Origin: Pseudosulfitobacter pseudonitzschiae
Lineage (GTDB): Bacteria > Pseudomonadota > Alphaproteobacteria > Rhodobacterales > Rhodobacteraceae
NCBI RefSeq assembly: GCF_002222635.1
Contig: NZ_CP022415.1
Coordinates: 682,001-746,000, forward strand
Length of the DNA stretch: 64,000 nt
Direction: 5' to 3'
Under the pieces are notes generated by a model. That model was not told the origin of the DNA. It saw only the letters and a program-made list of their open reading frames with translations, and ran no database searches. Numbering within the stretch: the stretch's first letter is position 1; each line of letters begins with the position of its first letter. This document shows positions 53,466 to 61,659 of this stretch, in pieces. A program made the position numbers and the translations under genes.

Positions 53466-54063
53466 CTACTAGCCCCTTGTATCACCGCCGAAAGTTTAGT
53501 GCTGCGGCATTCAACTTCAACGACCGCTTTCTCCTGCGATTTCAACGGGTCGCTGCAACACAGGCTTCAAATTTCTCTGCTGGTCTCTGGTATTGCAAGG
53601 TCTTTCTCGGCCGCTCGTTGAGTTGTCGTGCGACAGCGCTGAGTTTGGCTTGGCTAAAGCCCGATATATCAATGCCCTTCGGGAAGTATTGGCGTAGAAG
53701 ACTGTTGGTGTTTTCGTTGCTGCCTCTTTGCCACGGCGATTGCGGGTCGCAAAAGTAAACGTCGATCTTGGTCGTCATGGTGAACTTCAAATGGTCTGTC
53801 ATCTCCGACCTGCGGTCCCAAGTGAGCGAGCGATACAGTTCCTTGGGCAGCTTGCGCGGCTGTTTGATGAGGGCCGTGATGACGCTTTGGGTGTCCTTGT
53901 TCTGCACCTTCGCCAGCATCACAAATCGAGAGTGGCGCTCGACCAGAGTGGCGATGTAACTGTAGTTGGACCCGACAATGAGATCACCTTCCCATGTGTG
54001 GATGCCCGCTTTGATGCAAGAAATATTATCAACGGTTTGAACATGTGATCGGGTACGGTCATG

Positions 54064-54205
54064 TGTCAGGCCTCAGATTGCGGCGTTTCACATGCCGCGG
54101 GCCGGTATGGCGATGCGAAGGTCAGGTCCATATCAATGACACGAGCGCTAAGCTCTCTGGGAAGGCCTGGTTTTCCTAACCTCGATCTAGTCGATCATTT
54201 GTCCT
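54064..54205 (-). ncRNA. candidate seekRNA/bridge RNA of element A
   Basis: This non-coding segment downstream of the recombinase aligns with 60111-60250 of element B. In RNA sense it reads AAAACCAGG, a variable 10-mer (54156-54165), a GAGC/GCTC hairpin, a variable 7-mer (54135-54141), then GATATGGACCTGA, and later a GCGGC/GCCGC hairpin. The 10-mer CCTTCCCAGA is complementary to CTGGGAAGG on the recombinase-sense strand of the right-hand target; the 7-mer region GTGTCATTG copies the left target GGGTCACTG at 7 of 9 positions. RNA ends are unknown. Confidence 0.7.
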
Positions 54206-54250
54206 TACTGTCTCAATGTCCTTCTCACATCATACCGAGCGATGCAGCCT

Positions 54251-55276
54251 TTAGGCTACCGCGATCGGATCTCGATAATCTTCGTGTTTCGTCATCATCG
54301 CCCAAATGATGCGCGCCGTTTTGTTGGCGAGCGCGATGGCTACCAGCATGCGAGGCTTACGCTCTAACATTTGCTCAAGCCATGAGCCTTTGGGTGGACC
54401 ATTTTTAATCGCCCATCTGATCCGTGTCATGGCCCCAATTATCAGCAGTCGCCGAATGTCGCGCTGCCCCATCTTTGATGTTCGCCCTAACACTTGGCGC
54501 CCACCTGTCGATTTCTGAACCGGGACCAGACCAAGCCATGCCGCAAAATCCCGGCCGCGTTTGAAGCCTTCCAACGGCGGAGAGAATGCCTTGATCGCCA
54601 TTGCACTCACAGGACCAATACCGGGCGCGGTCTGTAGTCGAATCGTCTCTGGGTCGGACTTCGATTCCTCTTTTAGACGCCGCTCTATCGTAACGACTTT
54701 GTCGGTGAGCACATTAAGCTGATCCAGATGGACACGGCTGAGTTCAATAACGATTGAAGGCAGGTCACAATCCGGGCTTTCTATCTGTTCTGCTAGTTTC
54801 TTCACAAAGTTCCGACCGGGAGGGGCGATGATGCCATACTCCATCAAATGGCCGCGTAGCGCATTGATGATGGAGTTACGTTGCCGAACAAACAAATCCC
54901 GTGTCTTGAAGATCATCGAACGGGATTGCTGTTCAGCTGATTTAACAGGCACAAACCGCATGGTCGGTCGGACTGCCGCTTCGGCAATAGCCTCTGCATC
55001 ATTGGCGTCATTCTTCTGACGCTTGACGAATGGCTTCACGTAGATCGGCGGGATCAGACGAACATCGTGGCCCAGCTTCAGGATCTCGCGACCCCAATAA
55101 TGCGAAGAGGCACAAGCCTCCATCGCTACCACGCAAGGCTGCTGCTCACTTAAAAACTTCAAAAATTGCCCCCGCGACAGCTTCTTGCGGAACACAGGTT
55201 CGCCGACAGCCGTCGCGCCGTGCGCTTGGAAAACGGACTTTGCCAAGTCGACGCCGATCATTGTAACTTCATTCAT
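54251..55276 (-). CDS. IS110-family recombinase of element A
   Basis: The 341-residue recombinase starts at ATG 55276. DEDD residues are D10 (MIGVDLAKSVF), E53 (AMEACASSHYW), D90 and D93 (QKNDANDAEA). The C-terminal domain has TAPGIGPVSAMAIKAF and the serine-containing VPVQKSTGGRQVLGRTSK, then RRLLIIGAMTRIRWA. The frame is intact. Sequence similarity to the recombinase of element B is plain throughout, so the two elements are related but distinct. Confidence 0.93.
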   Translation of the reverse strand: MNEVTMIGVDLAKSVFQAHGATAVGEPVFRKKLSRGQFLKFLSEQQPCVVAMEACASSHYWGREILKLGHDVRLIPPIYVKPFVKRQKNDANDAEAIAEAAVRPTMRFVPVKSAEQQSRSMIFKTRDLFVRQRNSIINALRGHLMEYGIIAPPGRNFVKKLAEQIESPDCDLPSIVIELSRVHLDQLNVLTDKVVTIERRLKEESKSDPETIRLQTAPGIGPVSAMAIKAFSPPLEGFKRGRDFAAWLGLVPVQKSTGGRQVLGRTSKMGQRDIRRLLIIGAMTRIRWAIKNGPPKGSWLEQMLERKPRMLVAIALANKTARIIWAMMTKHEDYRDPIAVA

Positions 55277-56250
55277 GGTTGCCTCCAGTTTGGTGCTTTC
55301 AACATCACCACTATGGCACAGTTTGATGCCGGTTCCGGGGTGGGGCATCCACACCATCAGTGACCCGGTACGGCCCTATCCTCGACCTCTGGCGGGCGTT
55401 CACTGATCGGAACGGCATCCTTGATCTTGCGCAGCTTGAGCCCCTTTTGGGTGGCATGGCGAGACCGTCTAATCGCACGAGGACTGCGCAGACAGTCCTG
55501 TAATTCCTTCTTCAAAACCCCTCGGGTTTGAACATAAAGGCTACGATATATCGTCTCATGGGACACGCGGTTTTGCTCTTCATTCGGATGTTTGCGCTTC
55601 AGCCACCCTGCGATCTGCTGCGGTGACCATTTCCGGCGCAGCTTGCGCGCAATCAATTGGCATAAAGGGTCGTTGAACGAGAGCTTACACAATTTGGGTC
55701 GCATTGCGCAGTCCCAGGCACGCTGGTCTGAGCTGGCCGCGCGATAGGCCTGACGCCCACCGTTCCTGCGAACCTCCCGGCTGATTGTCGAAGGCGCGCG
55801 CTTTAGTCCTTGCGCGATTGCACGAAGCGACAGCCTTGCGACAAGCCCACGAGAAATCTCCTCCCGTTCAATCAGGCTCAAAGCACATCGCGACCGCGAA
55901 CGCTGCAGTGGCCGAATGCCACCAAACTGCGCCAAATGAGGGAAGATCGAAGACGAAGCACGATTGAAGTGACGCCCAATCGAACTCATAGAGTCACCGC
56001 GTTGCCACCGCTCCCACATCTCAGACCTCTGTTTGGCCGTATAAAACGTCCGAGTACGGTACTTCATGCTGAACACTCCATCTTTGATAAAAGACTAAAG
56101 TGTTGCCACGACCCATTGAAGCCGCGGAGCATGAGCCAATCAAAAGCAGGACCAAGACGTGAGAATGTCGGAAAACTATAAGGTAGCTATGAATAGGATC
56201 CAGGATTGGAGAGCATACTTGAGCCGTTGTGACACTCTCGCAGCGCCGAG

Positions 56251-59459: not shown

Positions 59460-60110
59460 GTATACCTTCCCGTCAAGACAAATTACAAATCCGGCGCAAC
59501 ATATCATCGGGCATCGTCAAGTTGCGGGGTATCTCAATAGCGGGTCCGTGGGCGCATGGCCAAACCCAAGCAATCTGGGGCCTTTTCAGGCCATCGCTTT
59601 CCTCCTGAGATCATCGCATACGCCGTCTGGGCTTATCACCGGTTCCCCATGAGTTTGCGTGATGTTGAGGACTTGCTCGCTGCACGCGGTGTTGTGGTCA
59701 GCTAAGAGACCATCCGCGCTTGGGCTGCCAAATTTGGATCACAATATGCTAGGGTGATCCGCCGAGACCGCCCAAAGTGGCGGACAAATGGCACCTGGAC
59801 GAAGTTGCCCTTGCAATGAACGGGCAGAAGTATTGGCTGTGGCGCGCTGTTGATAGCAATGGCGATGTGCTGGACACCCTCGTTCAGTCTCGGCGCAATA
59901 AACAGGCCGCAAATCGGTTCTTTTCGCAAACTGTTCAAGGCGTTTGGCCAACCACATGTTGTTGTCACGGACAAACTTCGGAGCTACGGGGGCGCCCTGA
60001 AAAACCTCGCTCCGGGAATAGAGCACTGCAGCCACAAGGGTTCTGTGGTTGCCGTCCTTGATGCAAGATGTTTTTCAGACCTCTTGAGTTGGTGATCGAG
60101 TGCGTGCTTC

Positions 60111-60250
60111 TGTCAGGCCTTCGAGTGCGGCATTTCCAGAAGCCGCTGGCCGGGATGGTGATCTGCGGATCAGGTCCATATCTCAACAACGAGCTTCGAC
60201 GCTCATTCCCTTATCCTGGTTTTCCCGATCCAGATCTGTTCGATCATTCT
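60111..60250 (-). ncRNA. candidate seekRNA/bridge RNA of element B
   Basis: Same layout as in element A: AAAACCAGG, variable 10-mer (60205-60214), GAGC/GCTC hairpin, variable 7-mer (60183-60189), GATATGGACCTGA, then a GCGGC/GCCGC hairpin and GGCCTGACA. On the plus strand ATCTCAACAA at 60180-60189 equals the right-hand flank 61431-61440 at all 10 positions; the RNA-sense 10-mer ATAAGGGAAT matches ACAAGGG (60034-60040) at 6 of 7 positions. These are the two sides of the insertion site. Confidence 0.72.
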
Positions 60251-60318
60251 GCCCATTCAGGTCTTTGACTCCTTACACCTCCTTTACCGACGTCAATCGG
60301 CCCTGCGCTACACCGTGG

Positions 60319-61347
60319 TCATGTAGCGACCGCCTGCGTCGGATCCCGATAATTTTCCTTCTTCGTTTGCATGGCCCATAGGGCCCGGGCCATCTTGTTG
60401 GCCAGCGCAATTGCGACCAGCATCTTCGGCTTGCGCGCGAGCATACGTTCCAGCCAAGATCCTTTGGGTATGGATTTGCGACCTAACTGGCTCAAGCGTG
60501 ACATCGCTCCGATAATCAGAAGCCTTCTGATGTCAGATTGGCCCGCCTTTGACATTCGCCCCAGACGGGGTTTGCCGCCTGATGAATGCTGTCGTGGCAC
60601 GAGGCCCAGCCAGGCCGCAAAGTCGCGGCCCCGGGTGAATGTCTCCAGTGGTGGAGCAAATGCCTCGATGGCAAGGGCGCTTAAAGGGCCAACGCCCGGC
60701 ATCGTCTGAAGTCGTTTGGCCGTGTCCGTCTCAGTGGACAAGGCTTTGATCCGTTTCAACTTGGCGTCGATCCGGACAGTGGTCTCTTCAATCAGTTCGA
60801 AAAGGTCTCGACACTCCTGGCGGACCAGGTCTGGAAGATCGCAATTCGGGTCCTCAAGGATCTCATTCCCGCGGCTCAAATTCCCTATGCCCTGCGGGAT
60901 TGTATGCCCGAACTCATAGAGGATTGATCGCAGACCATTTACCAACTCAGTCCGTTGGTTCACCAAACGCTCCCGGTTCCGGAACAGGATCGCACGGGCC
61001 TGTTGGCTCTCAGACTTGGCAGGAACAAACCTCATCTCCGGACGCTGCGCCGCGACGACGATAGCTTCTGCGTCCGCGGCATCGTTTTTCTGGCGCTTCA
61101 CAAATGGTTTCACATATTGCGGCGCGATCAGTTTCACCTCGTGACCAAGTCGGGCCAGCTCGCGCGCCCAGTAGCTGGCACTGCCACACGCCTCCATGAC
61201 GATGACCGCGGGTGGTTGCGCCGAAAGAACCTCCCGAAACTGTGAGCGGGACAACTTCTTACGAAACTTCAACTGCCCAGTCATGCTTGCCCCGTGAAGC
61301 TGGAAAACGTTCTTTGCCAGGTCCACTCCGATCATTGTATCTTTCAT
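60319..61347 (-). CDS. IS110-family recombinase of element B
   Basis: The 342-residue recombinase starts at ATG 61347. DEDD residues are D9 (MIGVDLAKNVF), E52 (VMEACGSASYW), D89 and D92 (QKNDAADAEA). The Tnp domain has TMPGVGPLSALAIEAF and VPRQHSSGGKPRLGRMSK with candidate catalytic serine. The frame is intact. It is clearly similar to the recombinase of element A along its whole length. Confidence 0.93.
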   Translation of the reverse strand: MKDTMIGVDLAKNVFQLHGASMTGQLKFRKKLSRSQFREVLSAQPPAVIVMEACGSASYWARELARLGHEVKLIAPQYVKPFVKRQKNDAADAEAIVVAAQRPEMRFVPAKSESQQARAILFRNRERLVNQRTELVNGLRSILYEFGHTIPQGIGNLSRGNEILEDPNCDLPDLVRQECRDLFELIEETTVRIDAKLKRIKALSTETDTAKRLQTMPGVGPLSALAIEAFAPPLETFTRGRDFAAWLGLVPRQHSSGGKPRLGRMSKAGQSDIRRLLIIGAMSRLSQLGRKSIPKGSWLERMLARKPKMLVAIALANKMARALWAMQTKKENYRDPTQAVAT

Positions 61348-61659
61348 TTGCCGTCCTTTCCGTTTCATGATGTCGAACACCACGACCTTGGCACATTGCG
61401 ATGCCGTTTGGGGAGGACGGCAACCACCCCATCTCAACAATTGATCCGAAGGATCACACAGGCCGACCCGACGGCGAGAAAAGATCATGGGAAGATTCAA
61501 ACCATCTTCCGTCCACGCCGCTATACACTTTCAGCCGTTGTCTATCGCAGACTAGAGCCGATGCCCCTCCGCGAGCTCTTTGGCTTGGCTGCCTGAAATC
61601 GAAGCCTCACAAGAAAATCGCGTGCGATGCAAACACCTTACGCAACCGTCCCCCATGTT

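What the first reader, a model, noticed from the sequence alone, without database searches (positions are those of the whole stretch)
60111..60250. Element B carries the homologous RNA with different guides that match its own, different target
Plus-strand ATCTCAACAA (60180-60189) equals the flank at 61431-61440 in all 10 positions, and RNA-sense ATAAGGG matches ACAAGGG at 60034-60040 in 6 of 7. The positions are the same as the guides of element A, but the sequences differ as the targets differ. Two independent cases in one window make chance unlikely.
Basis: partly seen in the sequence, partly recalled or inferred. Interest (0 to 1): 0.82.

Follow-up and report, generated by a model that had tools for sequence, protein, structure and literature searches.

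The report
RNA-guided jumping element aims at another
The stretch is the guide-RNA gene of a bacterial jumping element: its guides match the place where the element sits (a gene of another jumping element), and relatives aimed at other places carry other guides, as in the seekRNA/bridge-RNA systems described in 2024.

Summary
The finding is real and its interpretation holds, but the kind of system is known. Element B (window 60042-61434, minus strand) is a 1393-bp IS1111-type member of the IS110 family. Its downstream non-coding region encodes a seekRNA/bridge RNA. The one mismatch in the 7-mer is a U.G wobble. In 105 distinct insertions, each RNA pairs with its own flanks at fixed positions far better than with shuffled flanks (T 433 of 630 pairs against 163; B 445 against 166). 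Relatives with up to 93% identical transposases carry different guides, each matching its own site. B interrupts IS6-family transposase genes; one uninterrupted copy in the same genome equals the joined flanks of a sister copy at 300 of 300 bases. A interrupts IS30 transposase genes. The RNA also carries a 7-nt copy of the element's right end plus core, varying with it in 74 of 81 guide sets: a donor guide. New member of a known kind.

The parts
60042..61434 (-). Element B, complete IS1111-type insertion sequence, 1393 bp (7-bp left extension AGATGGG at 61428-61434, 3-bp right extension AGA at 60042-60044)
   Evidence: Comparison of three copies; empty site of sister copy L002
60319..61347 (-). 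DEDD transposase/recombinase (P0001, 342 aa)
   Evidence: Pfam PF01548 and PF02371; sequence matches to ISCro4 and IS621 chains in the PDB
61415..61427 (.). Left subterminal inverted repeat, 13 bp (GTGGTTGCCGTCC in element sense)
60045..60057 (.). Right subterminal inverted repeat, 13 bp
60095..60245 (-). seekRNA/bridge-RNA gene of element B
   Evidence: Covariance model R1, 151.9 bits, E 3.6e-34; 11 of 25 pairs with compensatory change
60208..60214 (-). Target guide T (AUAAGGG), pairs with the right flank on the element-sense strand
60180..60189 (-). Target guide B: UUGUUG (matches left flank) + core AG + AU (equals left end bases 3-4)
60107..60113 (-). Donor guide ACAGAAG = right-end ACAGA + core AG
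   Evidence: Covariation scan; 74 of 81 guide sets carry their own version
60034..60041 (.). Right flank of B (target half read by guide T); IS6-family transposase codons, lacking 2 bp against expectation
61435..61440 (.). Left flank of B (target half read by guide B)
53995..55359 (-). Element A, IS1111-type insertion sequence, 1365 bp, inserted in an IS30-family transposase gene
54048..54196 (-). seekRNA/bridge-RNA gene of element A
   Evidence: Model R1, 140.5 bits, E 1.7e-31
54158..54165 (-). Element A target guide T (CCUUCCCA)
54132..54140 (-). Element A target guide B (GUCAU + core UG + AU)
54060..54066 (-). Element A donor guide (ACACAUG = right-end ACACA + core TG)

Best explanation
The region 60095-60245 (minus strand) is transcribed as a structured guide RNA (seekRNA/bridge RNA) of an IS1111-type insertion sequence. 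The RNA binds the DEDD recombinase made by the same element. One internal loop holds two short guides, about 7-8 nt complementary to the element-sense strand right of the insertion point and 5 nt plus a 2-nt core complementary to the other strand left of it; together they pick the target. A second segment (donor guide) copies the element's right end plus core and probably recognises the joined ends of the circular form. Recombination at the shared core dinucleotide inserts the element without target duplication. In element B the guides are set for the HKG-LNN codons of IS6-family transposase genes; in element A for the HWEGD/HWEAD codons of IS30-family transposase genes. Shown here: conserved structure, guide-flank and donor-guide covariation, family membership, empty site. 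Inferred from published work on relatives: transcription, RNA processing, protein binding, circle formation, chemistry.
For: Transposase domains; sequence matches to IS621 and ISCro4 chains; subterminal repeats with 7/3-bp extensions; RNA downstream of tnp with top-strand guide 5' of bottom-strand guide, as Siddiquee et al. report (PMC11187229); own-flank pairing far above permutations; wobble pairs outnumber A.C mismatches 46 to 12, p 1e-4; close relatives with different guides each matching their own flanks, e.g. L093/L146, 92.6% identical; compensatory base pairs; donor-guide covariation 74 of 81 against permutation mean 25, maximum 35; empty site 300 of 300.
Against: No transcript or activity data. 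18 of 109 insertions fail the guide-match filter (one search lists them), some through damaged ends (L004), odd registers or rearranged flanks. The window copy lacks 2 bp at its right junction and the core there, and copy L003 has a guide mutation (UUGUCG for UUGUUG), so individual copies may be inactive. Permutations ignore shared ancestry. The guide match alone is not unique: in 29 of 91 elements some site inside the element has an equal or higher count of matching bases, for which the guide's own DNA is a likely but untested cause.
Confidence: 0.95

Rival explanations
1. The match is a remnant or duplication of target DNA carried inside the element, not a guide; the RNA is incidental.
For: The B-guide is literally a copy of flank plus left-end sequence.
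Against: The T-guide is the reverse complement of the other flank, both halves sit at homologous positions of a conserved structured RNA, and deviations are wobble pairs far more often than A.C.
Confidence: 0.02
2. Target choice is set by the protein; similarity of guides and flanks merely reflects shared ancestry of element and site.
For: Related elements often share targets, e.g. A with L045 and L159.
Against: Transposases 85-93% identical have unrelated targets and correspondingly unrelated guides; in L083/L145 only the left guide and only the left flank differ.
Confidence: 0.03
3. The RNA only picks the target (seekRNA in the narrow sense); the 7-mer matching the right end is a structural motif, not a donor guide.
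For: Siddiquee et al. describe only target matches in the parts read; shared ancestry could tie right-end type to RNA type.
Against: Of 23 combinations of left and right end types in 81 guide sets, the RNA changes with the right end in nearly all.
Confidence: 0.15

Closest known systems
IS1111 family with seekRNA (ISEc11, ISPa11, ISKpn4, ISPst6; Siddiquee et al. 2024, PMC11187229; parts 1-5 of 9 read)
   Same: DEDD transposase, subterminal repeats with 7/3-bp extensions, downstream non-coding region, two short guides with the top-strand one first, no target duplication, natural reprogramming
   Different: Other targets; the donor guide seen here is not described in the parts read
IS110/IS621 bridge RNA (Durrant et al. 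2024, PMC11208160, and the companion structure paper PMC11208158; passages read)
   Same: Internal loop with two target guides, shared core dinucleotide, donor-matching segment, bases after the core equal to the donor end
   Different: RNA lies in the other end of the element, guide order reversed, core here AG/TG/CG in element sense rather than CT; Durrant et al. state potential donor-binding nucleotides for many IS1111 RNAs, and here that is backed by covariation across 81 guide sets
ISEc21 (IS110 group, PMC11187229) and IS4321/IS5075 (title only, in the reference list shown)
   Same: Elements programmed against other mobile elements; ISEc21 targets codons around a catalytic D of IS3 transposases
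   Different: Here IS6 and IS30 transposase codons are hit by IS1111-type elements

Membership tests
IS1111 family | DEDD transposase with C-terminal Transposase_20 domain and GL-P----SG motif, 330-350 aa | tested here: met
   PF01548 and PF02371; 342 aa; GVDLA at 7, VIVMEA at 48, KNDAADAEA at 87, GLVPRQHSSGG at 248; the assignment of catalytic residues is recalled, the SG motif is
IS1111 family | Subterminal inverted repeats of about 11-13 bp with 7-bp left and 3-bp right extensions | tested here: met
   13-bp repeat, AGATGGG and AGA
IS1111 family | Long non-coding region downstream of tnp encoding the RNA | tested here: met
   RNA at 60095-60245, downstream of tnp on the minus strand
IS1111 family | Top-strand guide precedes bottom-strand guide in the RNA | tested here: met
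   60208-60214 is 5' of 60180-60189 on the minus strand
IS1111 family | No target duplication, one orientation at the target | tested here: met
   L002 joined flanks equal L221 at 300 of 300; three copies in the same orientation to IS6 codons. The window copy itself lacks 2 bp
IS1111 family | RNA co-purifies with and is needed by the transposase | not testable with these tools
   Needs experiment
Bridge RNA (bispecific) | Donor-binding segment covarying with the element ends | tested here: met
   Right end plus core: 74 of 81 against at most 35 in 500 permutations
Bridge RNA (bispecific) | Second donor guide for the left end | tested here: inconclusive
   Left end almost invariant, no covariation seen; conserved CCAU could pair with AUGG
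Rfam families | Match above gathering score | tested here: not met
   0 matches in the window

The most novel reading that the evidence does not exclude
In alphaproteobacteria this IS1111 clade behaves as RNA-programmed parasites of other transposons: guides are set against conserved codons of IS6, IS30, IS3, IS5, IS630 and IS1111 transposase genes and even against the guide-RNA genes of other IS1111 elements, and elements that target IS1111 transposase genes may spare their own copy by a synonymous AAG-to-AAA change that removes the AG core.
Probability: 0.3. Interest if true: 0.6.

Novelty: new member of a known kind. Interest (0 to 1): 0.4.

Why it matters
It gives a large natural set (109 insertions) that fixes the guide lengths, the core, the wobble tolerance and a donor guide for IS1111 RNAs, which bears on how such systems choose sites. 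The choice of other transposons' conserved codons as targets suggests a testable view of these elements as RNA-guided parasites of mobile DNA.

Tried and rejected
Rfam search of the window: no hit. Idea that guides put wobble-capable G or U at codon third positions to read amino acids rather than bases: not supported; G/U at 64 of 107 third positions against 115 of 229 first and second positions, with repeated copies counted. Wobble pairs are more frequent at third positions (15 of 107 against 5 of 229), which ordinary synonymous variation can explain. Idea that elements aimed at their own family's genes spare themselves: the own copy of the KRQKND site has AAA in all three K-type elements (L064; L075 and L080), but AAA is also found in 46 of 127 distinct transposases and the three are related, so it is only suggestive; a pattern search for more K-type guides in 390 genomes found none. 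Self-match count as a test of specificity: uninformative, probably because the guide gene itself scores (that cause was not tested). Orphan RNA hits in the genome: L274 lies 3' of a probable tyrosine-recombinase gene with no transposase match better than E 0.019, L275 has none better than E 0.39; treated as remnants. Rows dropped: of 202 loci held, 201 had a transposase match and 181 an RNA-profile hit, 120 passed end and motif detection, 109 distinct sites, 105 distinct guide/flank combinations in the permutation, 91 passed the match filter, 81 distinct guide sets. The filter uses Watson-Crick counts, so largely describe a set chosen for matching; the permutation does not use the filter. Literature: 8 searches of the held library; I do not claim that covariation evidence for an IS1111 donor guide is absent from print, since figures and supplements were not seen.

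Full report
What is there. Element B occupies window 60042-61434 on the minus strand (1393 bp). It encodes a 342-aa transposase with the DEDD_Tnp_IS110 and Transposase_20 domains that matches, by sequence, the ISCro4 and IS621 chains in the PDB (E 1.1e-14 and 1.8e-10). Three near-identical copies lie in the genome (L001 = window, L002, L003). Their ends agree with the IS1111 rule of Siddiquee et al. (PMC11187229): 13-bp subterminal repeats, 7-bp left and 3-bp right extensions. The joined flanks of L002 equal an uninterrupted IS6-type gene elsewhere in the genome, L221, at 300 of 300 bases and 573 of 600 over a longer stretch, so that insertion was precise and without duplication. Element A (53995-55359) is a relative with 58% identical transposase.

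The observation. The stated matches exist at the stated coordinates. But the element ends at 61434, so of the 10-base match only 6 bases are flank; the other 4 are the element's left end. Across the family the left guide covers flank positions -5 to -1 (77-83 of 91 Watson-Crick at each), then a 2-nt core and 2 bases equal to the left end; position -6 is at chance, 22 of 91. The right guide covers about 8 bases of the right flank with an offset of 0, 1 or 2 (64, 21 and 6 of 91). In B at its full-length sites the offset is 2 (L002, L003). The one mismatch in the 7-mer is a U.G pair.

Is it chance? In one search the guide registers were fixed by conserved motifs of the RNA, not by best match. In 105 distinct guide/flank combinations, Watson-Crick pairs over 6 positions per guide number 433 of 630 (right) and 445 of 630 (left), against permutation means of 163 and 166 and maxima of 200 and 202 in 2000 permutations. 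The 5-nt left guide equals the own flank exactly in 49 of 109 insertions and a foreign flank in 0.45% of pairs. Among deviations in the 91 filtered insertions, wobble pairs outnumber A.C mismatches 46 to 12 (binomial p 1e-4), as expected if RNA pairs with DNA. Permutations ignore ancestry, but close relatives answer that: L093 and L146 (92.6% identical transposases), L113 and L149 (89.9%), L083 and L145 (89.1%, only the left guide and left flank changed), L037 and L147 (85.6%, likewise) carry different guides that fit their own flanks.

The RNA. An alignment of 22 diverse members folds into a long closing stem, an internal loop carrying both target guides around a small hairpin, and a GGCC stem with a GCGGC hairpin; 11 of 25 pairs show compensatory changes. 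A covariance model from it (R1; A and B are among its 22 members) hits the window exactly twice with confidence: 60095-60245 (151.9 bits) and 54048-54196 (140.5 bits); the next hits have E 1.5 and 2.5. The genome has 19 hits, and 31 of 289 genomes drawn from the class (the window's own among them) have a match at E 1e-8 or better. Rfam has no matching family in the window.

A donor guide. An unbiased scan of RNA columns against flank and end positions recovered the two target guides and, in addition, a segment just after the GGCC stem that covaries with the right end and core. In 74 of 81 distinct guide sets the RNA there holds an exact 7-mer equal to the element's last five bases plus core; shuffled pairings give a mean of 25 and a maximum of 35 in 500 permutations. 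Right ends CACAGA, CACACA, CAAAGA, CAGAGA, CATAGA, CACAAA, CACACC and CACACG each come with their own RNA version; L143 (CATAAA) is an exception. In B it is ACAGAAG at 60107-60113, in A ACACAUG at 54060-54066. The region was found on the same data on which it was then tested, and shared ancestry inflates the count. Durrant et al. state that many IS1111 RNAs have potential donor-binding nucleotides, from predictions and six inspected elements (PMC11208160). The core dinucleotide is the same at the left end and in the right flank in 103 of 109 insertions (AG 78, TG 20, CG 4, GG 1).

The targets. B sits in IS6-family transposase genes at HKG-LNN (L002 flank: PF13610; frames). A sits in IS30-type transposase genes at HW(E)(G/A)D (L009 flank: PF00665; frames; the name IS30 is from the motif, recalled, and the neighbouring HTH_38 domain). 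Of the 81 guide sets at least 21 point at mobile elements: 16 by Pfam or BLAST and 5 by the same motif read in frame (L003, L060, L045, L159, L121). These include other IS110/IS1111 transposase genes (L064, L080, L068), the RNA gene region of other IS1111 elements (L084, L139) and the end region of another IS110-type element (L005, L116; L005 joined flanks equal uninterrupted L027 at 120 of 120). Others hit acs (L066), dctM (L152, L076), a parB-like gene (L033, below Pfam's cut-off), an mscS-like gene (L185) and tRNA-Leu (L154). The remaining sets were not resolved; flanks sent to Pfam were picked partly because they looked recognisable, so no share should be read from this. Targeting of another IS family's catalytic codons is already published for ISEc21.

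Results against a clean picture. 18 of 109 insertions fail the match filter. The window copy's right flank reads ACCC where the frame of homologous genes demands two more bases, so the core is missing there; L060 and L204 lack one base at the same junction. L003 carries a guide mutation. The codon-wobble idea failed.

Verdict. It is a new member of the IS1111 seekRNA / bridge-RNA kind. The family-wide donor-guide covariation and the range of transposon targets are the parts of most interest.

Noticed in passing
window 60041-60044 (L001), L060, L204: Right junctions of B-family insertions in IS6 genes lack 2 bp (window copy) or 1 bp (L060 and L204, same site) against the reading frame, while L002 and L003 are exact; in B the right guide is offset from the core, which might make strand exchange ragged.
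   Followed up: partly
L064, L075, L080 (KRQKND codons of their own transposase genes): Elements whose guides match GCAGA|AGAACGATG in IS1111 transposase genes have AAA instead of AAG there in their own gene, removing the AG core; AAA is also in 46 of 127 distinct transposases, so only suggestive.
   Followed up: partly
L274 (G000:C2:326347-326496): An orphan copy of the RNA without a nearby transposase lies just 3' of a probable tyrosine-recombinase gene.
   Followed up: partly
L241 (G000:C6:67900-70200): A different IS110-type element appears inserted at the corresponding place (just before NN..E) of another IS6-type transposase gene, perhaps an independent choice of the same codons.
   Followed up: no
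L019 and L013 (G000:C1 about 1407767-1410240): IS1111-type element L013 sits inside the non-coding region of another element (L019, a relative of L018), i.e. in its probable guide-RNA gene.
   Followed up: partly
hits H30, H31, H35, H36 (Sinorhizobium plasmids): IS1111-type relatives overlap or adjoin repC on four Sinorhizobium plasmid records, suggesting a repC target.
   Followed up: no
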